Shown: positions 27,143 to 53,786, counted from the stretch's first letter. The stretch is 64,000 bases of DNA from Bacteroidales bacterium (GCA_017642535.1 JAGCOW010000048.1:1-64000), one strand, 5' to 3'. Program-made: numbers and translations. Notes: a model not told the origin generated them from the sequence alone.

Positions 27143-27262
27143 CGCTCAAAAAATGTGTGCCGAAATTAGATTTTTTTTCAAAAAAGTCAAAGTAAAATGA
27201 AAAAATTCCGTGAAAAACATTTACTTTGCAATAATAGCTATTATAAGAGGTATAAAAAACGT

Positions 27263-30200: not shown

Positions 30201-33200
30201 GTAGTGTAACTCAAGAATACACCATCACACAACCCAATGCATTGACAATCGCAATTGAAAACCAAACGGGAATAACCTGCGAAGGCGATTGCGACGCATC
30301 TGCCGATGTTATTGTCACAGGTGGAACAATGCCTTACACAATACAATGGTCTTCGGGCGAAACAGGTTCTAACGCAACAGCATTATGCATAGGAACACAA
30401 CAAGTGACCGTTGAAGACGCAAAAAAATGTATTGAGACCATTTCATTTGATGTGAATAGCACGCGAGATCGATTGATGGTAAATAATACGATAAAAAAAT
30501 CCCCTATTTGTAGCGAAATTGTACCTTCGGGCGAAATAACAGTGTCCCCTTCGGGTTCTTCAACGGGAGATTATTTCTACGAATGGAAAAATGACGGAAC
30601 TATTATCTCAACAGCAAATTCGGTTACCGGAGTGGAAGCTGGAGCTTATTCCTTACACCTTACCGACGGAACTTGTGCATTCGACACAACAATCACACTC
30701 AGCCATGTATTAGACGTAACTTCTGAATTTGAATACATAGAATCAACTTGTGACGGAGAATCTTATAAACTGACAATCTCAAACGAAGACATTGCCAACT
30801 ATTCATACGTATGGGATAATGGTAGCACCACCCAAACAGCAACAGGATTAGACAATGGATTACATAGTGTAAAAGCAACCGACAAAGATGGTTGCATACT
30901 AACAACGTCGCTTCAAGTTGAAGAAAAGTATTTAAACTCTCAAGTTTCCGTAACAGATGTAAATTGTTTTGGAAAATCGAATGGCTCAGCTACGGTAACG
31001 GCAGAAAACACCAAAGGAGAGGTTCATTATAATTGGTACAAAAAATCATCAGACGAACTAATCGGTTCTGGAACATCGATTTCAGGATTATCAAAAGGCG
31101 ATTACTACGTTGAAGTCTATGACGATAATCATGCTACATGTGCCGACATAGTTGACGTTACAATTAACGAGCCAGTTGAAATGCAATTGATTATTGCAGA
31201 AGAAATGCCCTCGTATTGCCAAATGCCTAACGGAAGAATTATCGTTGAAATCATAGGTGATCCTATTCTACCTGTAACGTATGAATGGAAAGACAATGAA
31301 TCCAATATATTGGGAGACAAAGCTTCGTGTACCGTCGTTCCTGCTGGAGTTGACATCACTATTACTGCCACCGACGCTGTTGGTTGCTCCGCCACCAAAC
31401 TGAAACAAATTTCCGACATATCAAACTTCTCACTACAAATAATGCCAACCGCTGACATTAAATGTTTCGGGGGAAATGACGCAGCTTTAGAGGTGTTTAC
31501 TATCAATGGAGAACCTCAATTCACATATGCGTGGGATGGGTATCCTGACGTTAATTCCAATACGCTTACAGGACTAGCTTCTGGAACATATAGCGTTACC
31601 GTTACTGACGCGAAAGGATGTAAAGCAACCGAAAGCTATTTCGTCCCCAATCCACAAGAACTACACGTTGAATTTGACGAAACACCACGTATAGAATGTA
31701 AAGGTGGCACTGGCACATTGACAGCCGTTGCTACTGGTGGTTGGCCTTCTTACACGTACAATTGGTACGATACAAATGACAACATACTCCAATCTTCTTC
31801 GCAATCTGATCTAAATTGCAAAAAAGGATTGTACAAAGTGAAAATCTCCGACAAATACGGGTGTGAAAGCGAAGTATTCTCCTATGAAATGACCGAACCC
31901 GACACATTAACAGCCATTTTCACTGTTGATGTTACCGAATGTGGAAACAACTCAGAAACTGGAAAAATAACGATTGACAAGATTTCTGGTGGGTGGGAAA
32001 ATTCTCCATATCGTTACAAATGGGGAAAACTCTCTGATGACAAGACATGGTTCGACTACGATTCATTAGAGACACAAGCATTGACGAACTTACCTGCAGG
32101 AACGTTTGTCTGTACCATAACATATACCAAAGATTCCTCGGAATGCTACATTGAAAAGGAACTTTTCACAAACCCGCTTATGCCTGAATCTATAGAAACA
32201 GTATCTCAGCATACTCGTTGTAGTTACTATACTGATACGGAAATAGGAAATGGCGTAACCGACGGTAGCATTGAGGTTACAAAACTAATTGTATCAAAAG
32301 GGAATTATGACGATTCTATGCAAAGTATCGCCAACATTGCAGATTACACCTTTACGTGGAATGATGCGAAACGACAGACTGGTCCTCTTGCAACTCATTT
32401 AAATACAGGTTCGTATGAGGTTACGGTAACTGGTGCGAACGAATGTTCTAAAACCTTCCAGACCGATACCATCGATTCCTATGTAAAATTGGACGCCGAG
32501 ATTTATGCAACAGAAGACAATACGCTGATTCGAAAACAAATCTGCTTGGAAGACTCATTGAACGTATCGGCTACGTTACGCCCGACATACGACTATGGGT
32601 ACACTCCTACCGACAATACAGTCTCGTATGCATGGTCAATTCTCGAAACGAATAGTTCCGCAACCATTAATACACCCGACGAACCTTCTACGTGGGTTAC
32701 CCCACAAGCACAATACTACGCCGATAGCAGTCAAGTCTTATTCTCTTACAGCATCGACGGATGTACTTCTAAACCCGTCAGTTACACCATCCTCCATTAT
32801 GATTCCGTGAATTTTGCAATCGAGATGTACGATACATTGGGCGTTTACATTGGAATGGACTCCGTTTCGGGATTACAAGGACTGCGGTACCTCTTCATGC
32901 CTATTGATGATCCATGGTTTGTTGACAAAACAGGCGAAAATGGTGTTACATCCATTTTGTGGCGTTCATCCAAACCGAATAAAATGGAAAAAGGATTGTT
33001 GGCTGACACTGTCACGAACGAAAAGACCTATACCCGTTCTGGCAACACTGGCTTACTGATTCGACTTGAAGAATCCGAATATTTGTATGCAACTGCTACA
33101 ACAATACACGGCTGTAAAGAACACGCACAAATCTATGTTGACGTAATGTCAAGTAACTTTGTACCTTCTGGTTTTTCACCTAACGGAGACGGAATCAACG

Positions 33201-33430
33201 ACGAGTGGGTCATCCCCTATTTAAATAATTGTCCAGAAGCCAAAATTCACATCTACAATCGTTGGGGCGTACTTGTATATGAAAATAACGTTGAATACAA
33301 GACGCAACCTTGGAACGGGACATCGATGAACGGAAGCAAATTGCCTATGGGTACATATTATTATGTAATAGAATACAACGATATAAAAAATACTCCAACA
33401 AAAACAGGATCGGTTTCAATTATACGATAA
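27263..33430 (+). CDS. Giant SprB-like repeat adhesin with gliding-type C-terminal domain
   Basis: I start at ATG 27263, which opens a signal peptide (MRSFILKCTICIGLLCSSLL). The in-frame ATG at 27197 adds 22 basic residues before it. The 2055-residue protein contains about twenty SprB-type repeats of ~75-80 residues. Each has a DGS/NGxI-like turn, Y-W-NG or NW sequence, LxAGTYTVTVTDxxGC and a following strand. The final ~90 residues are a CHU_C gliding-associated domain (PSGFSPNGDGINDEW, IYNRWGVLVYEN, GTYYYVIEYND). Such proteins are exported by T9SS and anchored at the surface. It is followed at once by PorP/SprF, the usual partner. Confidence 0.92.
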   Translation: MRSFILKCTICIGLLCSSLLTFSQDDWDECEDSHGINVCYKQNNPLCPDPPDGSYVVKVSGIPPTANDIVVILYNFDTKEYEKKNIPTGMSTCVVTFSNLAFNNLYHPLVNIDGIAKWEGMSFQLKVPEYSAKLTKEREAGCTGQPVGVASVEFNAGIGPYTWEWNKKDDASFAKHSNQAQITDMTPGDYFVRVTDQNGCTINSDTLTIATQDISISVTNTKNVSCKDTTDGVIEVAVSGAYGDYNLYWNGDKNHLIDKNALGNNSLAADTYMIQVEDEIGCTDETGPVEITEPAKKIELNLTDFKDLDCKDIPNGQATFSVENANGAVSYLWSDGAGSGSSRNDLAANISYSLTVTDAKGCKATNSVKLSQPDTEVSVSVQDFKEPSCYGYSDGSITVTAIGGNSGVFDYKWNSTLGEATKNNISAGDYEIIAIDGLGCTDTIQFNLEQPNPLDALFTLTGGTAANPNVLPCNGETLSVAISVEGGIPPISYKWFDEDYGTKTSMEVGAGNVNVMIKDGNGCEQPATTTIIEPEKITATISEKTPIKCNGDYGELIVSVTGGTGNYSYNWSTDSKTETSGQVGEGTYSIEVTDEYGCSDNQSYNLKQPETLNAHIVVSEEACKDITQGNITVEVIGGTEPFEYQWNTGATSASIDNLTEIVYKVTVTDQHGCTSIDSVSMTNEKKFTIKPSKSNVTCPGREDGTARIQTVYGETPYTFNWSNGESIQNIKNLAVGTYTVRVTDSRGCEKNATIEIGLMPPMVVTSLTTEPTACSFPTGTATIKVTGGQSKLKYAWTKGSETLSTKNKVEKISEGTYNIQVTDRNGCVLDTSATIEKEANINIAVFSEDTIIHCVNGQSGVAKAIAKNGVEPYQFLWSDGQTTETATNLSAGTYNVTATDADGCDVTTSIKFYEDDVLTIITLEHKDASCFGAADGYLAIDIEGGVAPYTISWSNGPTTYTNQKLAAGTYTVTVEDSKGCSVTQEYTITQPNALTIAIENQTGITCEGDCDASADVIVTGGTMPYTIQWSSGETGSNATALCIGTQQVTVEDAKKCIETISFDVNSTRDRLMVNNTIKKSPICSEIVPSGEITVSPSGSSTGDYFYEWKNDGTIISTANSVTGVEAGAYSLHLTDGTCAFDTTITLSHVLDVTSEFEYIESTCDGESYKLTISNEDIANYSYVWDNGSTTQTATGLDNGLHSVKATDKDGCILTTSLQVEEKYLNSQVSVTDVNCFGKSNGSATVTAENTKGEVHYNWYKKSSDELIGSGTSISGLSKGDYYVEVYDDNHATCADIVDVTINEPVEMQLIIAEEMPSYCQMPNGRIIVEIIGDPILPVTYEWKDNESNILGDKASCTVVPAGVDITITATDAVGCSATKLKQISDISNFSLQIMPTADIKCFGGNDAALEVFTINGEPQFTYAWDGYPDVNSNTLTGLASGTYSVTVTDAKGCKATESYFVPNPQELHVEFDETPRIECKGGTGTLTAVATGGWPSYTYNWYDTNDNILQSSSQSDLNCKKGLYKVKISDKYGCESEVFSYEMTEPDTLTAIFTVDVTECGNNSETGKITIDKISGGWENSPYRYKWGKLSDDKTWFDYDSLETQALTNLPAGTFVCTITYTKDSSECYIEKELFTNPLMPESIETVSQHTRCSYYTDTEIGNGVTDGSIEVTKLIVSKGNYDDSMQSIANIADYTFTWNDAKRQTGPLATHLNTGSYEVTVTGANECSKTFQTDTIDSYVKLDAEIYATEDNTLIRKQICLEDSLNVSATLRPTYDYGYTPTDNTVSYAWSILETNSSATINTPDEPSTWVTPQAQYYADSSQVLFSYSIDGCTSKPVSYTILHYDSVNFAIEMYDTLGVYIGMDSVSGLQGLRYLFMPIDDPWFVDKTGENGVTSILWRSSKPNKMEKGLLADTVTNEKTYTRSGNTGLLIRLEESEYLYATATTIHGCKEHAQIYVDVMSSNFVPSGFSPNGDGINDEWVIPYLNNCPEAKIHIYNRWGVLVYENNVEYKTQPWNGTSMNGSKLPMGTYYYVIEYNDIKNTPTKTGSVSIIR

Positions 33431-36894: not shown

Positions 36895-36915
36895 GAAATC
36901 AAGGTTTTACCCTTG

Positions 36916-36957
36916 TGACCCCGGAGAGGCTCGAACTCTCGACCCATTGATTAAGAG
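36916..36957 (-). other. Attachment site: 3' fragment of tRNA-Lys(CTT)
   Basis: The minus strand carries exactly the part of a tRNA from the anticodon loop onward: CTCTTAA (anticodon CTT), TCAAT, variable GGGTC, T-arm GAGAG-TTCGAGC-CTCTC, acceptor CGGGGTC and discriminator A. Upstream of the loop the matching ATTGA stem, D-arm and acceptor 5' strand are absent, replaced by AT-rich DNA. This is the signature of tyrosine-recombinase integration into a tRNA gene. The restored full gene should be at the far end of the element, right of 64000. Confidence 0.88.
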
Positions 36958-38495: not shown

Positions 38496-41400
38496 TTAGA
38501 TTTTTGCTTTTGCCATTTTCATCTTCAACATAAGTGCCAATGCACGCTTGCGTTTTGTGTCGGCAGAATCGCTACTGTTAGGTTGCTGTTTTCCTGTCGG
38601 AATTTTCGATTTATCTACTTTTAGCGGTTTCCATTCCCCTTTGTTTGCTTTCGTGTCTTCATTGTCGAAATCATTAGGGAAATAGTGTGCTGCCTGTTGT
38701 GCGTCCAATTCCACGTAGATATTGTTATTTTCCAAATCCTGTAAGAAATCGTCAAGACTATCGTTAGGGAAACAACCAATAGCCAATACACGCTTGTAGC
38801 GATAATATGTTTGCTCAAATCCACGACCAGTACCATATTTCAACCAAACAGAGTTTGTTGTTATTTGTTTGAGTTCCTTTTTCTTGGCAATATCGTTGTC
38901 TATGTAAACAATCAATTGTTCTCCTACGCATATCAACTTAAATCCAAAGCTCAATCCAAGTGCAGGTTCTTTTATGCTCTCATTGCGGTATTCCTCAAAA
39001 ATCTTTTTACATCTCGTTGGTTTGTATCTTTTGAATGCAACCACAACACCGCCACCGTTTTTGTTTTCCGTGTCTTTCGGCAACAAAACCCCCTTGCGGA
39101 TAGAGCCGTCTTTCATTGTAAACGAAATCAGTCTCGATTTTTCGGGTGCTTTCCCAAAACCTTTTAGTATGTTGCCTGTGATAATGTCACGGAGTTCACG
39201 GTTTGCAGACGCTTCTTTGGTAATCTTGTCCCAATCATCGAGAATACGTTTGTCGAGGTCTATGGAACTGCTATTGTTACGCCACAAATCTTCGGTGTAG
39301 TTTTGTATTGCCATAAGTTTTTCGTGTCCCTCGTTGGCAATATTGTAGTCGATTGAACGTGTAGAATTGGCAACGGCAAACGAAATGGTAATGTTGCTCG
39401 GAGCCATAGGGTTGTTTGCCTTTCGGTTCACGTCAGCACCAAGACATATCGCCTTTGTGTTCAAGTCAATCAAGCAACTGCGACCTGCATAGAAATACTC
39501 AATGATACGTGACTTATAGTTCTTTGTGTTCGTTTCGTTCTGCTTGCGTTCCGCCTGTTCCACGTACTTTTGCTCAACCTCACGTTGGATTTCGTCCCAA
39601 GTGCGTTCGCCAGATTCCACAAGTTTTTGGAATTTTGGCGAGTTACGCATTGATTCAACAGCACGAACCTTTTGTTCCTCTATTTCGGCAAGTCGTTTGT
39701 CGCATTCCTTGCGTACTGCGTTTCTAAACTCGTCAGCAAGTTTCTTTGCCGTTTCCTTTGGCTCGTCCCCTGCTTTTGCAATAAGCGACAAAACAATCTC
39801 TTTTGTATATGGCTTGCGAAGTACATCGCATTCGTACACGCCCTTATATGCTGCATCGGCAAAAACTGACTGCCCACTCGTACGTGCAAGCAACGGAGTC
39901 TCACGGACAAACTCGGCATTGAGTTTCATCGCTTCCACTTCCAAATCGTATTCGCCACGATTCTTCAACTGATTGATTTTCTGTTTGTAGTTTCCAATCA
40001 CGTTGTTGTAAAAGTCCTCTTGTTTGCTCGATTCAAGAATAGCCACACGTCCTGTAACTTTCTTTGCAATATCCTCGTCGGGGACTGATTTTGCAACGGG
40101 TTTCGGAGTAAACAAATAGCAAGGGTCGCCAACTGCCATAGTAAATTCCTCGTTGTCACGCATATATGCTTTTACGACCTCGTCGCCATACTTGTTGATG
40201 AAATCGTCTGTGTCAATCACGCTCGTCGAGTTCTTTTGGTTTGAAGCCGTATTTGCGTCGAGCGAACGGAGTTTCTTCTGTAACATCATCATCATACGTC
40301 GTTCGGCAGGAATAGCCGAAATAAGGTAGTCGTATGACGGTGGAATTTCGGGGAACTGACCTGTACGGTTGATTCGACCACGTTTTTGAACTTCCGTAGA
40401 TACGTTCAGTTCATATTGTGCGATAACCATAACACGTGGCTTCACTTCCTCTCGTTTCAAGTTTGTCCCTTTATTGGTTGCGTGTGCCGACGCTCCTGTC
40501 GAGCCACTTGTGTTAATCAAAAGCACGTCGGATTGAGTGTTTTGGAACTTGGCAAATGCCACGTTTGCCTTTTCACGCTTACGGTTTACGATTCTTCCCC
40601 TCGTTCCCTGTTCGTTGGTAAACTCAATTTTACGTGAACGACCTGTAACTTCGGAACAAGTGAAGCCCTCACGTTCAATCTTACGGATTATTATGTCGAT
40701 TGGAGAACAAGTGATTCCTGTCGTTGTGTTCTTTATCTTACGCTCAATGCGTAGATATTCCTCTTGTGCTTCGGGAATGAGTTCATCGAAATTCAAAATT
40801 TGCAGTTCCGATTTACCTTTTGCCACTTTCTTTTGATAGCGTAAAGTAGATTCAAGTCCACGCAACAAAGCAACAGAATAGTCGGTGTTGATTTCCTCGT
40901 TTTCAAGCGAATGGCGACCGTCATCAGCGTGTAAATCGCTAATCATTGATTCAAACGTGGAAGCGAACGCCACAACAACCTTTTTCCCTTCTTTCAATCT
41001 TCGTATAGTGTGGTCGGCAACGGCTTCCGCCTTGATAGCGAACAACACTTGGTTTACTATGTTGAACACTTTCGAGAAATACGAAGCACGGCTAACGCCC
41101 AAATCCTTGTTGGTGCTGTCGGCTTTTTCTCCCTCGTCGGCAAGTTCCTCGTTCATATCGTCCATTATCGGACTGATGTACGCTTTCTCAAAGCCGATGA
41201 TTTCGCGAATTAGTTCCGTAATGTTGTCGCTCATAATTCGGTGTTCTTTTTCGAGATTGGGAACGCCAAATTCCTTTTCTCCGTTCTCGTCGAGGTAAAT
41301 GTAATTAACCTTGATACCGTCGTATGTGCGTTCCCGACGGAGCATTTGCCCCTCGTGTACCAATTCCGACGAAATGATTTCCTGTAACGCTTCGCCACCT

Positions 41401-42509
41401 TTTGAAATGGATTCAATCAGTTCAGCGTCGGGAAGTTCGGCTTCGGAAATACAGGTACGCAAAGCGAACAACGGCATATTGTCGGGGCGTTTTGCAAACG
41501 TAGCCGACAAGAAACACACGTTTTTAGCAAGTTTAACGGCTTGTGCGAACGCTTGGAACGTGTTAGAGCCGACAACCGTAGATTTTCCACCTCTGTCAGT
41601 CCCTTTGGAACTACCACCTGCGTTGTGTGCTTCGTCGAGTATCAACGTGTTCGGCTCACAAATGGCGTGCAAGAAATCAATCTTTGCACCGTCACGCTTT
41701 GGCGTTGTGAACTGCGAATATGTTGCAAGCACGTAGTCGTAGCCGTCGGGAACACGCTTTGAGTTGATGATTGAATCGAACTGCTTTTTGTCGGTCATAT
41801 ACTTGTAAACCGTTACAATTTCGTCGTTGTCGCCAACTTCTGTAATGTTCGCTTTCGGGTCGTTGTTGATGATGAACGGTTTTAACGAAGCACAGCCAAT
41901 ATCTTTCAAGTCACGGTAGATGTCGGTAAACAAGTTCGGTTTTTCCGTTACAAAAACGGCTTTCTGTCCCTGTACGTGTGCGTAGCGGATAAGACACGCC
42001 GCCATACGACCTTTACCAATACCTGTTTGGTCGCCAATGATGATTGCCTGTTTGCGTGCTTCCATATTGTAGATTGCGAGTGCAACCGAATCAACCTGTT
42101 CGGCAAACAGACGGTTTACAATATCTTCCTTTGACCATTGCAGACGTTCACAAACAAAGTCGGTAACGTCGCCACCAACGGCAGTTTTCAGTTTAGCCAA
42201 CGCTTCGTGTGTATCGTCGCCCATACTGTCGGGGACTTGCGTGTCGAGTTTCGTGATTTGTGACGCTGGTCGGTATGCCATACCAAGTCCTTCTTCAATT
42301 TTCTCTATCTTGTTGATTTCCTTGCCACGTAATTCCTGCGTTTTGGTTGTTTGCCAATTTTCGGGCAATGTCATTGACTTGCTTGCACGGATATAACGGA
42401 CAACCGTCACGTTCAGTTTCATATCTGTTTCGGCTTCGGTGCAGAACCAAACCTTGTTCGGTTCTCCTTTAAGACGGAAAAAATGTCTTTGTATTTCAAT
42501 TAACTTCAT
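38496..42509 (-). CDS. Giant superfamily 2 helicase of the strawberry-notch type
   Basis: The 1337-residue protein contains a DEAH-box NTPase domain at residues ~130-480 (Walker A IGDQTGIGKGRMA at ~158-170, DEAH at 292-295, motif III FLSATF). A strawberry-notch-like C-terminal helicase domain follows at ~640-790 (VLLINTSGSTGASAHATN, QKRGRINRTGQFPEIPPS). These domains occur in large helicases of phages and conjugative elements and probably remodel DNA for replication or packaging. The rest is helical with unknown role. The C-terminal tail KRKRALALMLKMKM matches the tail of the neighbouring methyltransferase. It follows that gene by 11 bp. Confidence 0.88.
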   Translation of the reverse strand: MKLIEIQRHFFRLKGEPNKVWFCTEAETDMKLNVTVVRYIRASKSMTLPENWQTTKTQELRGKEINKIEKIEEGLGMAYRPASQITKLDTQVPDSMGDDTHEALAKLKTAVGGDVTDFVCERLQWSKEDIVNRLFAEQVDSVALAIYNMEARKQAIIIGDQTGIGKGRMAACLIRYAHVQGQKAVFVTEKPNLFTDIYRDLKDIGCASLKPFIINNDPKANITEVGDNDEIVTVYKYMTDKKQFDSIINSKRVPDGYDYVLATYSQFTTPKRDGAKIDFLHAICEPNTLILDEAHNAGGSSKGTDRGGKSTVVGSNTFQAFAQAVKLAKNVCFLSATFAKRPDNMPLFALRTCISEAELPDAELIESISKGGEALQEIISSELVHEGQMLRRERTYDGIKVNYIYLDENGEKEFGVPNLEKEHRIMSDNITELIREIIGFEKAYISPIMDDMNEELADEGEKADSTNKDLGVSRASYFSKVFNIVNQVLFAIKAEAVADHTIRRLKEGKKVVVAFASTFESMISDLHADDGRHSLENEEINTDYSVALLRGLESTLRYQKKVAKGKSELQILNFDELIPEAQEEYLRIERKIKNTTTGITCSPIDIIIRKIEREGFTCSEVTGRSRKIEFTNEQGTRGRIVNRKREKANVAFAKFQNTQSDVLLINTSGSTGASAHATNKGTNLKREEVKPRVMVIAQYELNVSTEVQKRGRINRTGQFPEIPPSYDYLISAIPAERRMMMMLQKKLRSLDANTASNQKNSTSVIDTDDFINKYGDEVVKAYMRDNEEFTMAVGDPCYLFTPKPVAKSVPDEDIAKKVTGRVAILESSKQEDFYNNVIGNYKQKINQLKNRGEYDLEVEAMKLNAEFVRETPLLARTSGQSVFADAAYKGVYECDVLRKPYTKEIVLSLIAKAGDEPKETAKKLADEFRNAVRKECDKRLAEIEEQKVRAVESMRNSPKFQKLVESGERTWDEIQREVEQKYVEQAERKQNETNTKNYKSRIIEYFYAGRSCLIDLNTKAICLGADVNRKANNPMAPSNITISFAVANSTRSIDYNIANEGHEKLMAIQNYTEDLWRNNSSSIDLDKRILDDWDKITKEASANRELRDIITGNILKGFGKAPEKSRLISFTMKDGSIRKGVLLPKDTENKNGGGVVVAFKRYKPTRCKKIFEEYRNESIKEPALGLSFGFKLICVGEQLIVYIDNDIAKKKELKQITTNSVWLKYGTGRGFEQTYYRYKRVLAIGCFPNDSLDDFLQDLENNNIYVELDAQQAAHYFPNDFDNEDTKANKGEWKPLKVDKSKIPTGKQQPNSSDSADTKRKRALALMLKMKMAKAKI

Positions 42510-42520
42510 AGTTTTGAGAA

Positions 42521-44677
42521 TTAGAGTTTTATTTTAGTCATTTTCATTTTGAGCATTAGTGCTTTAGCCTTTTTGCGTTTATCGTCTGAATTGTCTTGTT
42601 TCGTTTCAATAAACGGATAAAGGCGGTCAAAAAGTTGGTCGAATGTCGTTAAAATAGTGTCTTGATATGGGTCGAAAACGTAGCGAGGTTTGTTTGATTC
42701 GTCGTATTCGTGCCTACCGTCAATCAAAATAACGACTATTGGATAGGTAGTACCTTGCTTTTGATAGATGTGGTCGCCGTCGATATAAATAACGTCAACC
42801 ACGTTGTATTGGGCATACAGATACCCAAGAAATGTTTTCCATTGACCAAACAACACCTGTTTGCTTGACCTTTCATTAAGCGGTTTCCAATAGGCATTCC
42901 AAAGTTTACCGCCGACAATTACAGCCGCCTTTCCGTCGTTGTGCATTTTGTCGAGTGCGAGAACCGCCATTTTATAGTCAAGCGTGTTTATTTTCCAACC
43001 GTGACGCTCTATCTTGTCGTTTTCGTTTAGTTTTGCAAATGGTGGGTTTGTCATTATTCCCCGAAACGCCTTGTCGGGAAATATGGCTAACTCCAAATTG
43101 CTTGACGCATTTTGATTGGTCACGCTTGAGAAGCCAAGATTTTTTAGGTTTGCCACACGAATTTCGTCAAGTTCGTTCACACAAACCTGTTGTGGTGGAA
43201 ATGCAATGGTAAGCAAGCCGTTTCCTGCCGACGGTTCCAAAATTTTGCCATTACAAAATTTGTCATTCTTACCGACAAAACGCCCAAGCAGATACGACAA
43301 TGGGCAGGGCGTTGAGTATTGCTGAAGAACTTTGCTTTTTGTATCGAGTGGGCGAATTGTTACCTGTCGCTCGTACAGGTCTTTCATTTCCTCGTATTGC
43401 TGACGGAGAGAGTTACCGTTATTTGCTATACGACGTGCTTCGAGAACAACGCCCAATTCGCACGCCTGCATTATTTCTGTCTCGGTTTCAATATCGAAAT
43501 CCTTTGCTATCTTCTTTGCTTTGAGCCAATCAAGTTTTTCGCCTTTGCTGTAAAGTTCTGATAGGTGTTGTGCAAATTTGAATGTGCCAGTTTCTGTTAA
43601 TTGTTTTGGTTCATTGTTATCTTTGTAAACTTTTTTGATAGTGTCAAGTAATTCATTTTCTATATCTAAAAGGTCTATGCCTTTTATGATTCTATATTTT
43701 TCAACAATTATGTGAAAATCATTACGTATATCATCTTCGTTAAATGCTTTAGTTTTGCCTCCATAAACTGATTTGATTTTCGAAATGAGTCGAGATTCAT
43801 TCTTTGCTATATAATTGAAAAAACTTTTTTCGTTAATCAATTTCAATCTCTCATTGTCGTTTTTATCGTATGAGCCTAAATTTTCTTGTGAATCTGTTTG
43901 ATTTTCAGAATCTTTTTCTATATTTGCATTGTCAATCAATGACAAAAGGTATTCAGACTGCACGGAATTGAACCGAGAGCCCCTGAATACCTTTTTTGCT
44001 TTATCTTGATTTGCCATTAGCAAGAATCCATCTTCAACCCATTTAGTAATTTGATTTACTCTTCGTCCGTGAATACTTGCTATTTCGTTGATTAAAATTT
44101 TATTCGCTGATTTATTGGTATGTAAGGAAACACATAAAACACCCTCGTCATTTGATTTTTCAACAATAATGTTATATGCACCAGCAATTGTTTCTGACTT
44201 AAATACAAATATTGGCGAATTTATATCTGTATTAAGGTTTTTAAGATGTTCTTTTTTTAATGAATGTAATTCAATTTTCTCAAACAGAGTTCTTTTGTTT
44301 ATCATTATTGGCAAATTTGGAATACCGCAATCAAGTAAAATCTTTTTGGGCATTGTTACTCCAATAAATCTTCCTACAAATGTATTTGCAAAGAACTGGT
44401 TTAATTGATTTCTAAAATTGAACTTTATCTTTTCATCAGTTTTCCCCAAATCGCGTGATAACAAGTAGTCATCGTACTTCATTCCGTGTTCTTTCAACGA
44501 ACACTTGTCACGTTTTGCTTTTAATTTTTCTAACCGATTGTACAGGTATAGTGGTCTTTTTTTATGCTGCCCATCGTACCTGTCGAAGGCTTCAAAAATT
44601 TCATCTATGCCATCATTACAGTCTGTAATATCGGTACAATTGGACGCTATGGTATATGGAGATAGTTTTCTTTTCAT
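42521..44677 (-). CDS. N6-adenine DNA methyltransferase, Eco57I/helicase-associated type
   Basis: This 718-residue protein has a C-terminal class I methyltransferase: motif I LEPSAGNGLL at ~480-489, motif IV TNPPF at ~543-547, then the target region to ~700. The NPPF motif indicates methylation of an exocyclic amine, usually adenine N6. The N-terminal ~450 residues are helical and unassigned. No restriction endonuclease gene adjoins, so it is more likely an orphan protecting the element from host restriction. The tail KRKKAKALMLKMKM is shared with the next gene's product. Confidence 0.85.
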   Translation of the reverse strand: MKRKLSPYTIASNCTDITDCNDGIDEIFEAFDRYDGQHKKRPLYLYNRLEKLKAKRDKCSLKEHGMKYDDYLLSRDLGKTDEKIKFNFRNQLNQFFANTFVGRFIGVTMPKKILLDCGIPNLPIMINKRTLFEKIELHSLKKEHLKNLNTDINSPIFVFKSETIAGAYNIIVEKSNDEGVLCVSLHTNKSANKILINEIASIHGRRVNQITKWVEDGFLLMANQDKAKKVFRGSRFNSVQSEYLLSLIDNANIEKDSENQTDSQENLGSYDKNDNERLKLINEKSFFNYIAKNESRLISKIKSVYGGKTKAFNEDDIRNDFHIIVEKYRIIKGIDLLDIENELLDTIKKVYKDNNEPKQLTETGTFKFAQHLSELYSKGEKLDWLKAKKIAKDFDIETETEIMQACELGVVLEARRIANNGNSLRQQYEEMKDLYERQVTIRPLDTKSKVLQQYSTPCPLSYLLGRFVGKNDKFCNGKILEPSAGNGLLTIAFPPQQVCVNELDEIRVANLKNLGFSSVTNQNASSNLELAIFPDKAFRGIMTNPPFAKLNENDKIERHGWKINTLDYKMAVLALDKMHNDGKAAVIVGGKLWNAYWKPLNERSSKQVLFGQWKTFLGYLYAQYNVVDVIYIDGDHIYQKQGTTYPIVVILIDGRHEYDESNKPRYVFDPYQDTILTTFDQLFDRLYPFIETKQDNSDDKRKKAKALMLKMKMTKIKL

Positions 44678-47267: not shown

Positions 47268-48563
47268 TTATTCGTAACACATATAATTTTTCTTTTTAAT
47301 GATTCGTGCCGAAAATGGCATCAGTTCTTTGTCGTTACTCAATCTGTCCATAATCACTGCAGATTTCGTAATGAATGTATGGAACGTCGGATTATCACAG
47401 TTTTCGTCGGCATATATGTATTTTACAACAACCTTTTTCTCTTTTTTAATCTCAACTTCCATATAGTCAATAAAAACTATCTCACGTCCCGATTCGCAAA
47501 GTGCCATTATACTTTCTCTTTGCTCCTTGGGTACATCAAACCACGATGGGCGTGGTCTCTTTTCTGATAATTTTTTATATTCTATCATTCTGTCACCTTT
47601 TATGGTTTTCAATAAATTTTTACCGTCGCAGTGCTTCAACCAACCGTAGTAACTCGCCATTTGCATTTTCCACGTATCATCGTCGGCGTTTTTAAGGCGG
47701 TTCGACTTCTTCTTGATGTTCATTTTGATACGCTTACGCAACAAAGTATGCGTAGGATAGAACTTGTAACCTATGAAATCTAAACCACATCTGAACGGAA
47801 CTATTCTCGCATTTTCCTTTACCGTCAATCCAAGTGATTCAATCTTATTCGATAGTGTTTCCAATACACTATGTGCCGACTGCTTATCTTTGGCAAAACA
47901 CACTATGTCGTCCATATAACGATAATACCATTTCAAATGAATCTGCTCCTTTGCGAAATGGTCAAGCTCCGACAAAAACAGGTTGCTCAAATATTGACTT
48001 GGGAAAACTCCGATTGCAAGTCCACGACCTTTGGAATCTTCGTGGCGGTCAATGATTTTATCGAGATGTTTCAGAAGCGTTTTATCTTTGAACACACGCC
48101 GTATTGTCTGTTTCAGCTTGTCGTGCGGTATAGACTGGTAAAACTTTTTGCAGTCTATCTGAATATAATACCAATCGGCGAACTTGTGGCGGTTTGTCTT
48201 GATTCTATTCGCACACATCTGCAATCCACGCCCCTTGATGCTCCCGTATGTGTCGTTAGTCATTTTGGAAATTATGTACGGTTTGCAAACGTCCATAATT
48301 GCGTGGTGTGCAACCTTGTCGTACAACGTAGGACAGTGGATAATTCTTTCTTTTGGCTCGTACACCTTGAACTCATACAATTCAGAAAAATCGAACGTGC
48401 CTTCCTGCAGCTTCCTGCAAATTTCGTCAGTATAAAACTCACGATTTTCAATAAACTCACGTTTCTGTGCATTGTTACGCTGGTGTGCGAGTGCGGCACA
48501 CACCGCTTTCTCTACATTTCCTCGTGACGCTATTTCGCTCCAAAGATTTCCAAACCGCTTCAT
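47268..48563 (-). CDS. Reverse transcriptase of a diversity-generating retroelement
   Basis: The 431-residue enzyme copies the template repeat RNA with adenine-specific errors into cDNA that replaces the variable repeat. Motifs: RT3 YIQIDCKKFYQSI (~133-145), GVFPSQYLSNLF (~185-196), and the catalytic YMDD (~216-219). The fourth motif reads IGxxxSQ rather than the QGxxxSP of retroviral and group II intron enzymes, which is the diagnostic DGR form. There is no maturase or HNH domain. The C-terminal ~130 residues are longer than in compact DGR RTs and may hold the thumb plus an extra domain. Confidence 0.93.
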   Translation of the reverse strand: MKRFGNLWSEIASRGNVEKAVCAALAHQRNNAQKREFIENREFYTDEICRKLQEGTFDFSELYEFKVYEPKERIIHCPTLYDKVAHHAIMDVCKPYIISKMTNDTYGSIKGRGLQMCANRIKTNRHKFADWYYIQIDCKKFYQSIPHDKLKQTIRRVFKDKTLLKHLDKIIDRHEDSKGRGLAIGVFPSQYLSNLFLSELDHFAKEQIHLKWYYRYMDDIVCFAKDKQSAHSVLETLSNKIESLGLTVKENARIVPFRCGLDFIGYKFYPTHTLLRKRIKMNIKKKSNRLKNADDDTWKMQMASYYGWLKHCDGKNLLKTIKGDRMIEYKKLSEKRPRPSWFDVPKEQRESIMALCESGREIVFIDYMEVEIKKEKKVVVKYIYADENCDNPTFHTFITKSAVIMDRLSNDKELMPFSARIIKKKNYMCYE

Positions 48564-48672
48564 AACCTAACTAATTCAACCAATTTTCACTATTACGTTA
48601 CTCACAAGTCCTGTCATATCGTGATGTTCTGCCTTTCGGCAAAGTCACGGCAACAATTTATACTTCGTTATT

Positions 48673-48757
48673 TGCGGACGCCACGCCGTACACGTTGTTA
48701 GCATTGCTGACGTTGTTGTTGTTGGCACGCCCGACCCCATCGAGACCACCCCCAGCG
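48673..48757 (-). repeat. DGR template repeat (TR)
   Basis: This 85-bp segment lies 110 bp upstream of the RT start, in the non-coding region 48564-48810. Read on the minus strand it begins CGCTGGGGGTGG and contains four consecutive AAC codons, GTCAGC, AAT, GCT, AACAAC, GTGTAC and ends GGCGTGGCGTCCGCA. Its adenine-rich AAC codons are the positions mutated in the VR at 50631-50718. The GC-rich ends are unchanged between TR and VR. Confidence 0.95.
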
Positions 48758-48810
48758 TGGCATTCTGTCGCCGTAACTTTCAAGTTACTACTATGTCAAA
48801 GAACTCTCTA

Positions 48811-49152
48811 TTACTCAATTCCGTGGAACAGACTTGCCGAACCTTTGGAATCTGATGCTTTTGTACCTGCACTTGTCGAATGCAACAATACGTTTGATTC
48901 GTCAAGCACCTCACTTTCTGCTATTCTCGCACTCGTTGAGTGAACAAGAACATTTGCCTCGTCCAAAACTTCCGAATCCGCAACCCGAATACTCGATGAG
49001 TGAACGGCTATCGTATATGTTGCGTTCCAATTCGTTCCGTCGTACTCATAGTATGATTCGCCACAAACAACACGTGCCGTTTCGTTCGCCGTAGGTATAA
49101 GTAACAGCAAATCATCGTATGTGTTAACCGTATATGTCGGATTCAATACCAT
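48811..49152 (-). CDS. Small protein with 20-residue tandem repeats
   Basis: The 113 residues contain an N-terminal segment of beta type (TYTVNTYDDLLLLIPT, SYYEYDGTNWN). Two full and one partial 20-residue repeat follow (HSSSIRVADSEVLDEANVL, HSTSARIAESEVLDESNVL, HSTSAGTKAS), encoded by 60-bp DNA repeats. The DGTNW turn is typical of phage fibre tip proteins. It lies between the variable gene and TR, the usual place for avd, but it does not resemble Avd. It could be a small fibre protein cotranscribed with the variable protein. Confidence 0.6.
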   Translation of the reverse strand: MVLNPTYTVNTYDDLLLLIPTANETARVVCGESYYEYDGTNWNATYTIAVHSSSIRVADSEVLDEANVLVHSTSARIAESEVLDESNVLLHSTSAGTKASDSKGSASLFHGIE

Positions 49153-49154
49153 TT

Positions 49155-51041
49155 CTACTCGTTATAATATTCAACAAACACCGCAAACTGAACGAACGGC
49201 ATATCAATTATAGACTTGCGTAGTCTATCGGAATAACCGCCCTGCGAAACTGGCTGCCAAGCCAAGTAGTTACCGCTTGAAATTGGCACGTTATAGTCGT
49301 CGTGTGCTATTGCACCGTTCGTCTTGCCGACAAAGTACTCTCCGAACTGCTGTGCTGGAATCCATTCGGCGTTCTGCACACGTGTATCGTCGAACATCAC
49401 GCCAATCTCATAATCGGGATCCGAATGACTGAAATCGTCTGTGCTGTTCATTGCGACAAAACTTTCGCCTGGCACTATCGTGCGTGAACGATACGTTATG
49501 TTTTCATTGCCGACGTTCAAATATGTAGCACCAGCTTGCAAGCCGTCTCCTTGCTTGATTTTAACCGTTACGGAACGACGGCAGCGGCAATATATCACAT
49601 CGTTAGTGTTCGATTCGACAACAGGTACAAGATATGAACCAGCGTCAATGTCGGTGAACTGCGTTCCTGTTGCCGTAACCATTATGTTTTCGTCTCCGTA
49701 ATACGTTACGTTGTTGTATTTGATTGTTCCGTGAACCTTGTACCAGCTAACTGGAATGTCGGTATTTTGGCTGATATATTCAGAGCTGTCACGAGAAAAC
49801 ATTGTTGTAAGTCCAGTAAGGTGGATTCTTTTTCGGTTCATCGGTTGTGTAGGCAGTGCGAATATGCCGTTCAACTGAACCTGTGACGGATTTATGCGTA
49901 CAATCTTCGAATAGATTGCACCGCCATTTTCTATGTTCGCTTCGTTCAAACAAATCTTGCCGTTCACAACCTCGATACAGCCCTCTATGCTTCGTTCGTC
50001 CCACGTTCCTGCCACACCAGTTGAATCGTCCATAATCGGAATCGACAGAGCTGGCGGCAAAGCACCCAAATAGAAACAACCCGAACCAGTCGCCGTGTCA
50101 CGAATAGCGTCACAATCGGGTTTCAACGTGAAATCCAACTTTTCTGCGTCGTTGAAAATTTCGTCGCTTGTATGCGTAGAAAATATGCAGCCAAAGAACT
50201 TGACGCTCAATGTGCCACCAAGAGCGGCGACACGTTCTACAAGACTTGCATAGCGTTCCTCGCTCGTGCTGCCTGTTATACCTGTAACTTCCGTATATGT
50301 GCTGTCGGCGTTGCCGTTGGCAAAAATGTACCATTTCGTGTCGGCAGTGAATAAACATTCTGTAAATTCATTCGTGTCGTTCACAATCATAGCCGTTTTT
50401 GCAAAAATCGTCGTGTGGATTTTCGGCGTTCCGTAGCGAACTTTCATTATGTTCGTCACATCAATGTCGTACACGGTGGATTGTCGCAACGTAGGATTGT
50501 AGTTGCCGTTTCCATACCAAATCTTATATGCCGCCGAGTTTGGTATGATTTTGCTGTACACGATTTTTTCGACGGTGGTAAAGCCACCTAAGCATCCAAA
50601 ATGCAAACAGCAGTTGTGAATGAAGTTAGGTGCGGACGCCACGCCGGACACGCTGGCAGCATTGCCGACGAAGTTGCCGCTGATGGCACGCCCGACCCCA
50701 ACGAGACCACCCCCAGCGAGAGCCGTGACGTTAATGATTATCATATCGGTCATAGTAACGCCCCAAGTGGTGTATTTGAACTGTCCGTCGAAAACCGAAG
50801 CTCCGTAAAAATCGCCGATGATTTCTGAACCGTTAGAACCATAATATCCTTGGCCGTTCATATCTTCTGCAAAATAACCGATGCAAACCGCTTTCTTTTT
50901 GTTAGTCAATACGCCTGCCTTTGTAAGCGTCTTGAAAGGTTTTGCCTGTGAACCGTCGCCAAGCGTGTCGGAACCAAGCACGCTGTGAACGTACATAGCA
51001 CCCGAAATCGTCTTTCTCCATTTAATTGGTCTTGTAGCCAT
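49155..51041 (-). CDS. DGR-diversified beta-helix-like surface protein
   Basis: This 628-residue protein starts MATRPIKWRK. The region ~15-330 has the features of a right-handed parallel beta-helix: DGSQAKPFKTLTKAGV at ~29-44 and repeated short strands with G/N turns. The variable repeat covers residues 108-137 inside this part, so about eleven codons of a surface turn are diversified. The region ~330-628 holds further beta-rich modules (GQTY-like strands, YVVPVVES, VMFDDTRVQNAEW). I infer a receptor-binding protein. The scaffold is not a C-type lectin fold by sequence. Confidence 0.8.
   Translation of the reverse strand: MATRPIKWRKTISGAMYVHSVLGSDTLGDGSQAKPFKTLTKAGVLTNKKKAVCIGYFAEDMNGQGYYGSNGSEIIGDFYGASVFDGQFKYTTWGVTMTDMIIINVTALAGGGLVGVGRAISGNFVGNAASVSGVASAPNFIHNCCLHFGCLGGFTTVEKIVYSKIIPNSAAYKIWYGNGNYNPTLRQSTVYDIDVTNIMKVRYGTPKIHTTIFAKTAMIVNDTNEFTECLFTADTKWYIFANGNADSTYTEVTGITGSTSEERYASLVERVAALGGTLSVKFFGCIFSTHTSDEIFNDAEKLDFTLKPDCDAIRDTATGSGCFYLGALPPALSIPIMDDSTGVAGTWDERSIEGCIEVVNGKICLNEANIENGGAIYSKIVRINPSQVQLNGIFALPTQPMNRKRIHLTGLTTMFSRDSSEYISQNTDIPVSWYKVHGTIKYNNVTYYGDENIMVTATGTQFTDIDAGSYLVPVVESNTNDVIYCRCRRSVTVKIKQGDGLQAGATYLNVGNENITYRSRTIVPGESFVAMNSTDDFSHSDPDYEIGVMFDDTRVQNAEWIPAQQFGEYFVGKTNGAIAHDDYNVPISSGNYLAWQPVSQGGYSDRLRKSIIDMPFVQFAVFVEYYNE
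50631..50718 (-). repeat. DGR variable repeat (VR)
   Basis: This 88-bp copy of the TR lies inside the 628-residue gene. All 12 substitutions relative to TR fall at template adenines (A to T, G or C on the coding strand), for example GAT to GTT, AAC to GGC, TAC to TCC. No other base differs. It also has five NNC codons (ATC AGC GGC AAC TTC) where the TR has four AAC, one extra codon. Directly after it, CACCTAA / TTAGGTG (50585-50591 and 50626-50632) can pair, like the hairpins often found after VRs. Confidence 0.95.
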
Positions 51042-51056: not shown

Positions 51057-53786
51057 TTATTCTACGTATCTTGTTGATTCTAACCACCACGTTCCGTCAC
51101 CGTCGTACAGCAACGTCGCAACACACGACTGGTTAGCCTCTCCTGTCGAAAAATCAAACTCGCTTGGATTCTTAACGGCAACGGTAGAACCGTTTCCGTC
51201 GTCCATAACGATGTAGAGATTTCTTCCGCCTGTGGAATCCTGCACGATTTTGAGTTGACAAGAAAATGCGTTGCTTTTCAATGTTTGTATGTTTGGCAAT
51301 ACGATTGTATTGTTGCTGCCTGTGAGCGTAAATTTCATCATCTTCTTTATGTCGCTCAATACAAGTGTGCCGCTCACATTCACATTGCTGACGTCTGAAC
51401 TTTTGAATACGCCACCTGTAGTTATTCCCGTAGGGTCGAATGTCGCACCGCTCTTTGCTATCCAACGCAAAACGTCACGTAAGTTTACCGAATAGAGGAA
51501 TGTTACTGAATAAGGCGGTATATGCTGTGCCAAACCTGTATAAGGATTTTCACTGTATATGGTTGTTCCGAATATGTGCATATCTCCGAAATCCCATACG
51601 TTCAACAATCCGTTGAAAGCAACGTCGCTCGTCTCATATTGAGCAAGCTCGTACATCAGATTCACACCGTCGGTCAGTTGTGCGAGAACTTCGGGGTCTT
51701 CATAATCTGCCGTGAAGTACAACACGCCATTTTCGTCGGTCTGTGCGTTACGCAAGTGTGATAGAGTGTCGTGTGTGATTGTCGTCGTGCTGCGTTTTAT
51801 CACGCTTGAAAGCGACGATGTTTTATAACCCATAAACTGTTCTTCGTCAGTTTGGGTAGAAGGGTTATACACCGTTTGTGTCCAACGTGACCATTGCAAA
51901 TCAGCCGTATTCGCAACGCCTATGCGTTTAATATACTTGCCGTCGCTATTGATTTCATCACAAGCAGAGCCAATGCCATACAATCCATATTCGGAGCATA
52001 CGGCAGGAAGATTCAACACGCTTTCCTCATAATCCACGAAAGAGAATTGGCTCTCTCCATACGACCACGCAAACTGAATAGACAAACAATCTTGTTTTGC
52101 GGTAAGTAGTGAAAATACAATCCAACCGTTATCGGGAGCGATGTATGTAGAAGCGTTTCCGTGCGTTCCACGTGTAAGAATTGTAACTTCGTCGGTCTCG
52201 TCAGTCGGTTGCGGTATCTGAAATCCAAGATACTCGAATCCTATTCCCGACAATGTTTCGCCACTTTTTACGACTGGTACATATCCATTGTTACCGCCGT
52301 CCACGCCTTGCAACACATTTACAAAAAACAACGTGTACGACGAATCGCTTGTTATTGTTCCGTCGCTATTGAGTTTCTTTCCGACAATGCGTTTTGCTTC
52401 GTCTTGGTAATTGAATAGATTTGTTCCACGGCTCACAATGTGAGTTGCTGTAAACGGCTTTAATTTGCCGTCGTCTTCGCCAATTAGCGACAAAATAAGA
52501 TTACCTGTAATCTTTTTCAGAATGCCTGTTGAAGATTCTGCAATACTGACTTCGCCACCGCTCGTTTGCCAAACAAATGCTGTGTTGTCAATAACAGCGT
52601 CGTCCTCGTTTGGCGTTATGTCACGTGCAAATCCAACGGACAATGCCGAAAAATAGCCTGCAAGTTCTCCTATAAGCGGTTGCCATTTTTCGCCATCGAA
52701 ATAATAATGTGTACCAGCAGGAATGTTGCCGTGTCTGTCCGTAACCTTATATGTTCCGTATGTCGTTTCATTTTCGGGCAATTCTGCGTATTCACATTCC
52801 CCTTTGTAACTAAACAAGTTTGCGATTGCACGGCTTATTTCGCCGCCTATCATCGAATATACGTAGTCTTTATGTATTGTAACATATCCTGTCGTGCTTG
52901 AAATCAACGTCTCTGAAACGTATGTAGTCACAAAACGACCGTGTATGTGCAATGTAGGCGACGCTAAATTCGTGATTGTGCCTACTGGCACGTGCGAATA
53001 GTAGTTATAAATGTTGCAAGCCTTATCAACGTTTGTTGTAAGAGGGTTTGCTATTGTCGTTCCACCATACGGATTGAATGTAACGACAAAAGACACTTCG
53101 TTGTCGAAACGTATGTTCAACTCTTTTGAACGATTAAGACTTGTGATTTTCAACTGCCAAATATCCTTAATCGGTTGCCCCGAAATGATTATATCCTTTA
53201 CATTGGGATTTATATTCCATTCCGTATAAGTTTCGGCAGTATGTTCTACGGTCGGTGCGACAATAGGAGTGGAGCAAAATATCTTTATGCTGTCGTCTGC
53301 TACTGACAACGCCTGTATAAGTTCCTCCCACGATTCAACACACACTTGCATACGACCAATGTCATATTTGTATTTTTGCTCTCCATACGCCTGTCTTGCA
53401 ACTGCAATTTCGTCGCCGTGTTTTGTGACCGTAGGTAATGGAGACAAACCACTAATTGAATCGTTATACGCTGACACATCGAGAATTTCCTCGTAGCTCC
53501 ATTCTTCCTCGTTCCACATCAACGCACAGAGCGAAGTTGTCGGGAAATTCAACTCGTCGAAATTCACATACACGCCACGCTCCAAGCCCCAAGCAAGATA
53601 ATACACTTTGCCCTGTGTCGTGTCGGGAACGGTGTTTTGTTCTGCCATACCCATATACGTATAGCCGTCAAGTATTTCGCTCTTCGCTTCAATCGCCTCT
53701 TCAATGTCGGATTCGCTTACAGTTGATTCGACAGTTATAATGTCGAATTTTCCCGTAAATGGATTGTATGTGACTTTCTTTTTCAT
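51057..53786 (-). CDS. Large fibre or adhesin protein
   Basis: The 909-residue protein opens with KKVTYNPFTGKFDII, a start widespread in fibre proteins of Bacteroidota phages. A segment follows (TYMGMAEQNTVPDT, QGKVYYLAW, GVYVNFDELNF, LCALMWNEEEW) also typical of phage-fibre heads. The middle and C-terminal parts are beta-rich with many G, N, S and T and several TNLFNYQDEA-like strands. It probably forms part of a host-contact structure with the diversified protein encoded next. Confidence 0.78.
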   Translation of the reverse strand: MKKKVTYNPFTGKFDIITVESTVSESDIEEAIEAKSEILDGYTYMGMAEQNTVPDTTQGKVYYLAWGLERGVYVNFDELNFPTTSLCALMWNEEEWSYEEILDVSAYNDSISGLSPLPTVTKHGDEIAVARQAYGEQKYKYDIGRMQVCVESWEELIQALSVADDSIKIFCSTPIVAPTVEHTAETYTEWNINPNVKDIIISGQPIKDIWQLKITSLNRSKELNIRFDNEVSFVVTFNPYGGTTIANPLTTNVDKACNIYNYYSHVPVGTITNLASPTLHIHGRFVTTYVSETLISSTTGYVTIHKDYVYSMIGGEISRAIANLFSYKGECEYAELPENETTYGTYKVTDRHGNIPAGTHYYFDGEKWQPLIGELAGYFSALSVGFARDITPNEDDAVIDNTAFVWQTSGGEVSIAESSTGILKKITGNLILSLIGEDDGKLKPFTATHIVSRGTNLFNYQDEAKRIVGKKLNSDGTITSDSSYTLFFVNVLQGVDGGNNGYVPVVKSGETLSGIGFEYLGFQIPQPTDETDEVTILTRGTHGNASTYIAPDNGWIVFSLLTAKQDCLSIQFAWSYGESQFSFVDYEESVLNLPAVCSEYGLYGIGSACDEINSDGKYIKRIGVANTADLQWSRWTQTVYNPSTQTDEEQFMGYKTSSLSSVIKRSTTTITHDTLSHLRNAQTDENGVLYFTADYEDPEVLAQLTDGVNLMYELAQYETSDVAFNGLLNVWDFGDMHIFGTTIYSENPYTGLAQHIPPYSVTFLYSVNLRDVLRWIAKSGATFDPTGITTGGVFKSSDVSNVNVSGTLVLSDIKKMMKFTLTGSNNTIVLPNIQTLKSNAFSCQLKIVQDSTGGRNLYIVMDDGNGSTVAVKNPSEFDFSTGEANQSCVATLLYDGDGTWWLESTRYVE

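What the first reader, a model, noticed from the sequence alone, without database searches (positions are those of the whole stretch)
47268..51041. A complete diversity-generating retroelement inside the element
The minus strand contains RT (GxxxSQ, YMDD), a template repeat 110 bp upstream of it and a variable repeat inside a fibre-like protein gene. TR and VR differ at 12 positions, all of them adenines in TR; no C, G or T of TR has changed. That is the unique mark of adenine-specific mutagenic retrohoming. The diversity lies in ~11 codons of NNC or similar type.
Basis: partly seen in the sequence, partly recalled or inferred. Interest (0 to 1): 0.95.

Follow-up and report, generated by a model that had tools for sequence, protein, structure and literature searches.

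The report
Phage hypermutation cassette with mid-gene target
A prophage in a gut-type Bacteroidales genome carries a complete diversity-generating retroelement, a device that rewrites one short stretch of a gene at random; unusually, it writes into the front third of a tail protein that looks like a beta-helix, not the C-type lectin tip that almost all known examples use.

Summary
On the minus strand lie a DGR-type reverse transcriptase (47268-48563; IGVFPSQ, YMDD), a template repeat (TR, 48667-48757) and a variable repeat (VR, 50625-50718) inside a 628-aa tail-protein gene. All 12 substitutions fall on TR adenines (P about 2e-9). The cassette sits in a ~40.5-kb prophage with 47-bp att repeats at tRNA-Lys.

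What is unusual is the target. A homologous cassette in rumen MAG RUG14538 (target 51%, RT 56% identical) has its own TR/VR pair, also 12/12 at adenines. In both, the VR lies 17-22% along the protein, with about 490 residues after it; in the other DGRs examined with complete targets it ends within 26 residues of the C-terminus. No C-type lectin or other domain is detected. The N-terminus matches the N-cap of right-handed beta-helix proteins, and relatives lacking a DGR are shorter at the VR. My best reading: a DGR diversifying an internal beta-helix coil. The fold is inferred; two AlphaFold runs failed (pLDDT 34, 32). Both RTs share a C-terminal extension found in no other genome searched. Activity could not be tested. 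Verdict: a real DGR, and a new variant by its target.

The parts
47268..48563 (-). DGR reverse transcriptase, 431 aa (IGVFPSQ, YMDD)
   Evidence: 56% identical homolog beside its own TR in G093
47268..47573 (-). C-terminal extension of the RT (about 85-100 aa), shared only with the RT of the homologous cassette; function unknown
   Evidence: 44% identity; no other credible match in 198 and 393 genomes, phages, Pfam or PDB
48667..48757 (-). Template repeat (TR), 91 nt, non-coding, 22 adenines
48630..48780 (-). Predicted TR RNA fold: stem enclosing the TR (about 48780-48766 with 48654-48641), then a TGCC-GAAA-GGCA hairpin (48641-48630); suggestive only
   Evidence: G093 has a stem of different sequence and TGCG-GAAA-CGCA
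48811..49152 (-). 113-aa repeat-containing protein conserved in the cassette (28% to G093); no Avd-like features seen by eye; function unknown
49155..51041 (-). Target gene, 628-aa phage tail protein; residues about 16-334 resemble a right-handed beta-helix
50625..50718 (-). Variable repeat (VR), 94 nt, target residues 107-138; internal
51057..53786 (-). 909-aa protein upstream of the target, 29% homolog in the same place in G093; probable tail or fibre partner
36911..36957 (.). Left att repeat (47 bp) of the prophage; exact copy at contig 77445-77491 inside tRNA-Lys, outside the window

Best explanation
This is a phage DGR of the order target(VR) - TR - RT without a recognisable avd, carried in an integrated prophage. 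The TR is transcribed and copied by the RT with errors at adenines. The cDNA replaces the VR inside the tail-protein gene, changing up to 12 codons (about 2.5e12 possible proteins, no stops). Unlike ordinary DGRs, the VR encodes one extended internal coil or loop near the front of a right-handed beta-helix tail spike or fibre, and the long C-terminal part stays constant. The likely use is to vary surface recognition of Bacteroidales hosts. Shown: RT, TR, VR, adenine specificity, internal position, a homologous second case, and the prophage boundaries. Inferred: the beta-helix fold, receptor binding, present activity, and any role of the RT extension.
For: 12/12 adenine substitutions here and 12/12 in G093/RUG14538 with a different TR. 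Target 51% and RT 56% identical, with two further linked genes conserved. VR at aa 107-138 of 628 and 105-132 of about 622, against 0-26 residues from the C-terminus in the DGRs of L001, L004, L005, L033, L035, L036, L040, L042, L043, L053, L054, L055 and L057. N-cap match of the family profile to bona fide beta-helix proteins: hhalign 82% (L110), 67% (L118), 42% (L123), against at most 0.6% for shuffles. Ten-member family alignment: VR-coded columns hold 32-34 residues in DGR members and 6-13 in eight relatives with no DGR found near them. phrog_4577 tail protein matches 6 of 7 members. Att repeats and integrase.
Against: AlphaFold2 on the full target and on the N-terminal half gave unusable models (mean pLDDT 34.2 and 31.8). 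Pfam and NCBIfam detect no beta-helix in the target itself. Alignment around the VR is at about 20-28% identity, so insertion against expansion is uncertain. Only two DGR-bearing members were found. No population data show activity.
Confidence: 0.68

Rival explanations
1. The target has a cryptic N-terminal C-type lectin domain carrying the VR, followed by other domains, as in the tentaclins. It would then be an ordinary DGR in an uncommon domain order.
For: VRs near the 5' end are known but rare, and in tentaclins they lie in an N-terminal C-lec domain (PMC10743442). The TR-coded Gly/Asn-rich pattern loosely resembles C-lec VRs. Several ordinary targets also gave no Pfam lectin hit, so absence of a hit is weak evidence.
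Against: Residues 16-66 align with beta-helix N-caps. Relatives without a DGR keep the N-terminus and the region after the VR but have far fewer residues between, which does not suit a lectin whose core contains the VR. Repeated rung-like motifs continue directly after the VR (by eye).
Confidence: 0.22
2. The cassette is a dead remnant: it diversified the VR in the past and no longer works. The AAC-number difference between TR and VR would be decay.
For: TR (4 AAC) and VR (5 codons) differ by 3 nt. No second copy exists to show turnover. No perfect hairpin of 6 bp or more follows the VR; such hairpins help retrohoming in BPP-1 (PMC3240598).
Against: RT, TR and target are all intact; no C, G or T of the TR differs in either system. 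The indel keeps the frame and lies in a repeat prone to slippage. Several ordinary Bacteroidales DGRs examined also lack a clear hairpin.
Confidence: 0.25
3. The TR/VR similarity is a chance or ordinary duplicated repeat beside an unrelated RT (for example a group II intron or defence RT).
For: The RT also matches group II intron and DRT models below their cut-offs.
Against: Adenine-only pattern at P about 2e-9 and 6e-9 in two systems. The RT's best solved match is 8ub7 (7.7e-29, against 1.2e-15 for a group II RT), and its closest phage RTs are crAss-like phage RTs, at least one of them (LMMB) from a published DGR.
Confidence: 0.01

Closest known systems
DGR of crAssphage LMMB and related crAss-like phages (lineage 3)
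   Same: Order target(VR)-TR-RT, no avd; RT about 40% identical over 336 aa
   Different: There the VR is at the 3' end of the tail-collar fibre gene and its lineage is assigned to C-type lectin class CLec3 (PMC7290462). Here the VR is internal and no lectin is detected. The RT here has a C-terminal extension beyond the matched part.
Tentaclin DGR targets (phages nd4, nd12; FP_Mushu and FP_Brigit Hoc-like)
   Same: VR near the 5' end of a phage target gene, constant C-terminal part
   Different: Tentaclins are an N-terminal C-lec domain plus Ig domains (PMC10743442). Here no Pfam domain is found and the N-terminus resembles a beta-helix N-cap.
Bordetella phage BPP-1 DGR (Mtd, avd, bRT)
   Same: Adenine-specific TR-to-VR transfer; RT similar to 8ub7 at 7.7e-29
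   Different: BPP-1 has avd, a C-terminal C-lec VR and a hairpin just after the VR. None of the three was detected here.
Cassette in RUG14538 (CADCCZ010000001.1; G093, L046, L061), unpublished as far as I could find
   Same: Four linked homologous genes, internal VR in the homologous target, RT extension
   Different: TR sequence differs and the surrounding phage is otherwise mostly unrelated

Membership tests
Diversity-generating retroelement | RT with [I/V/L]GxxxSQ in place of QGxxxSP, and an intact YxDD | tested here: met
   IGVFPSQ and YMDD in 47268-48563(-)
Diversity-generating retroelement | TR next to the RT and a near-identical VR in a coding gene | tested here: met
Diversity-generating retroelement | TR/VR differences confined to TR adenines | tested here: met
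   12/12 here, 12/12 in the homolog; plus one 3-nt indel
Diversity-generating retroelement | GC-rich block at the 3' end of TR and VR (IMH-like) | tested here: met
   GGCGTGGCGTCCGCA shared by TR and VR; G093 GGGGTGTGCGGT
Diversity-generating retroelement | Accessory gene (avd or HRDC); present in most but not all DGRs | tested here: inconclusive
   None recognised. The 113-aa gene matches no Pfam family. About a quarter of DGRs lack one (PMC7290462).
Diversity-generating retroelement | Hairpin or cruciform just downstream of the VR (BPP-1 and other phage DGRs) | tested here: inconclusive
   No stem of 6 bp or more within 70-80 nt here or in G093; best is GGTGG-CTTTA-CCACC here. Several ordinary DGRs also lacked one.
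Diversity-generating retroelement | Mutagenic retrohoming demonstrated | not testable with these tools
   Needs reads, isolates or an assay
C-type lectin DGR target | VR at the C-terminus of the target | tested here: not met
   VR 107-138 of 628
[quoted passage not shown]
   No Pfam or NCBIfam lectin match; structure prediction failed
Right-handed beta-helix tail protein | N-cap motif YVxS-x-GSDxxGDGSxxxPFxTxxKA | tested here: met
   Present; hhalign up to 82% to beta-helix proteins
Right-handed beta-helix tail protein | Beta-helix coils in a structure or a significant repeat-family hit | tested here: inconclusive
   No significant hit; models unusable
Temperate phage / prophage | Integrase plus att repeats at a tRNA | tested here: met
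   47-bp repeat at contig 36911 and 77445, tRNA-Lys 77449-77522, integrase 76041-77246

The most novel reading that the evidence does not exclude
DGRs are not tied to the C-type lectin fold or to gene 3' ends: this lineage diversifies an inserted internal coil of a right-handed beta-helix tail spike, with all target-site signals inside coding sequence and an RT bearing a lineage-specific C-terminal extension that may replace the missing accessory protein or help recognise the target.
Probability: 0.5. Interest if true: 0.78.

Novelty: new variant of a known kind. Interest (0 to 1): 0.6.

Why it matters
A survey of more than 30,000 DGRs reported VRs typically at target C-termini and annotated VR regions systematically in C-type lectin folds. 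It suggested that C-terminal placement lets the retrohoming signals lie outside the gene, and that the C-lec fold may be uniquely able to bear such variation (PMC8144416). Two homologous cassettes with different TRs place the VR in the front third of a protein that looks like a beta-helix. If the fold is confirmed, a second scaffold tolerates massive variation, and the retrohoming signals can be fully coding. That would also give a new scaffold for directed evolution of binding proteins.

Tried and rejected
Structure prediction of the full target with its homolog, and of residues 1-334 with two homologs: both unusable, so no fold search was run. Homologs from the genome search were not sent to the structure tool because its rule does not list them. 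Searches for target relatives in IMG/VR and the phage collection: none, apart from one distant relative (L085). Other VRs in the host genome: none. A stem around the TR: 22 flank-flank pairs against 5.5 in shuffles here (4 of 100 shuffles reach it), but 14 against 11.9 in G093, so not claimed. The missing hairpin after the VR is not distinctive, since ordinary relatives also lack it. The RT extension as a common stand-alone phage protein: the one weak hit (G074) lies beside a hemerythrin-like ORF and is probably chance. A rival based on a group II intron or defence RT was rejected on the adenine pattern and RT ranking.

Full report
OBSERVATION. The minus strand carries, in transcription order, the target gene (51041-49155, 628 aa), a 113-aa gene (49152-48811), the TR (48757-48667) and the RT (48563-47268). 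The RT has IGVFPSQ and YMDD. It matches RVT_1 at 2.5e-20, phrog_1423 reverse transcriptase at 2e-96, and among solved structures PDB 8ub7 best, at 7.7e-29 against 1.2e-15 for a group II intron RT. That 8ub7 is the BPP-1 DGR RT is my own knowledge; the tool names it only 'reverse transcriptase'. TR and VR differ by 12 substitutions, all at TR adenines, spread evenly over T, G and C. With 22 adenines in 91 positions the chance is about 2e-9. Either the TR lost a unit or reverse transcription slipped in the repeat. The adenines sit so that 12 codons can vary (nine with 15 residues, three with four), giving about 2.5e12 sequences and no stop codon.

SURROUNDINGS. The window is part of a 91-kb contig of a 2.78-Mb Bacteroidales-type assembly. 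Positions 36911-36957 are repeated exactly at 77445-77491 inside tRNA-Lys(ctt), with a tyrosine integrase at 76041-77246. The element is therefore a prophage of about 40.5 kb. It carries a phage lysozyme (45265-45798) and a MuF-C protein (42521-44677), a Strawberry-notch-type helicase (38496-42509), and a C5 DNA methylase at contig 64932-65921. To the left lies host sequence with type IX secretion cargo. Only one VR was found in the assembly.

A SECOND, HOMOLOGOUS SYSTEM. Searching relatives gave one close homolog, in G093 (the same contig as CADCCZ010000001.1, rumen MAG RUG14538). Four linked genes are conserved: the upstream 909-aa protein (29%), the target (51%), the small gene (28%) and the RT (56%). 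Nearly all the rest of the element is different. The G093 phage has a capsid-E protein and an SPP1-type portal nearby. Between its small gene and RT lies a TR of different sequence, and the homologous place in its target holds a VR: 84 columns, 12 substitutions, all at adenines, P about 6e-9, no stops. Two cassettes with different TR sequences in different phages therefore show the same rule at the same internal site.

POSITION OF THE VR. In the window the VR covers residues 107-138 of 628, and in G093 105-132 of about 622. The same script found TR/VR pairs beside related RTs in other loci. In those with complete targets, the VR ends within 0-26 residues of the protein's C-terminus (L001, L004, L005, L033, L035, L036, L040, L042, L043, L053, L054 twice, L055, L057). 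The closest of these RTs (L053, L054, L055, at 39-41% identity) have ordinary C-terminal VRs. Published work agrees: VRs are typically C-terminal, annotated VR regions are systematically C-lec folds, and C-terminal placement may be needed so that cis signals can lie outside the gene (PMC8144416). VRs near the 5' end are described as rare; in tentaclins they lie in an N-terminal C-lec domain (PMC10743442). So internal position alone has a precedent. The combination with a non-lectin scaffold is what I could not find in the papers searched (open-access papers only).

WHAT THE TARGET IS. No Pfam family matches it; phrog_4577 'tail protein' matches its N-terminus and five relatives. Distant relatives occur in other Bacteroidales prophages (G042 in four copies, three in tandem; G155; G092; G206) and in one IMG/VR contig (L085). 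None has a DGR RT in the fetched neighbourhood or on the same contig among the RT hits. L085 lies in a run of phage tail genes (by reading). A profile of the ten-member family aligns at its N-terminus (columns 12-67) with the N-cap of several Pfam-defined beta-helix proteins (hhalign 82%, 67%, 42%, 36%; shuffled controls at most 0.6%). After the VR the sequence shows repeated rung-like motifs (IHNCCLHFG, EKIVYSKII, RQSTVYDID, IHTTIFAKT, FTECLFTAD), spaced about 18-27 residues, which suits a right-handed beta-helix (by eye). VR-coded columns hold 32-34 residues in the two DGR members and 6-13 in the eight others. The whole interval G86-C229 is 143-145 against 95-132. I read this as an added or extended coil that carries the variation. 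This is inference: AlphaFold2 with two or three sequences gave mean pLDDT 34 and 32, and alignment near the VR is weak.

OTHER DISTINCTIVE FEATURES. Both RTs carry a C-terminal extension of about 85-100 aa (44% identical) found nowhere else credible in 198 plus 393 genomes, the phage collection, Pfam or PDB. It could stand in for the missing accessory protein or aid target recognition; there is no evidence for either. Downstream of both TRs is a short GAAA-loop hairpin with a compensated closing pair (TGCC-GAAA-GGCA, TGCG-GAAA-CGCA). A GRNA-loop hairpin of 4 bp or more arises in about 2% of shuffles of the window's stretch. In BPP-1 and other phage DGRs a GRNA-loop hairpin follows the VR (PMC3240598); none of 6 bp or more follows either internal VR, but several ordinary relatives lack it as well.

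VERDICT. That this is a DGR is near certain (about 0.98). That its VR is internal is a direct fact, repeated in a second system. That the scaffold is a beta-helix is likely (about 0.65-0.7). That it is active now is plausible but untested. It is a new variant of a known kind.

Noticed in passing
L047 and L063 (G093:C1:535116-575000+): An open frame of at least 13,294 aa running past the fetched stretch, starting near the capsid genes of the homologous DGR phage.
   Followed up: no
window 48733-48710 and 50695-50670 (TR/VR, AAC run): TR and VR differ by one AAC-type codon, so repeat number in the TR may add length variation to the target loop, besides substitutions.
   Followed up: partly
L051:5218-10808 (G042:C89) and L060 (G042:C24): Three tandem paralogs (and a fourth on another contig) of the target family without an RT; they differ most in the region matching the VR, so other phages may vary this site by carrying several gene copies.
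   Followed up: partly
window 27197-33430 (+): 2077-aa host protein with eight SprB repeats and a type IX secretion signal, in the chromosome beside the prophage.
   Followed up: no
window 38496-44677 (-): Strawberry-notch-type helicase (1337 aa) beside a 718-aa protein with a MuF-C domain and a methyltransferase-like region in the prophage.
   Followed up: no
L057:4768-6567: DGR target in G013 that joins an AbiH-type abortive infection domain (aa 9-328) to an FGE-sulfatase/C-lec domain with the VR at its C-terminus.
   Followed up: no
L054:2847-3554 (G119:C267): One TR with two VRs in two small adjacent target genes (137 and 156 aa).
   Followed up: no
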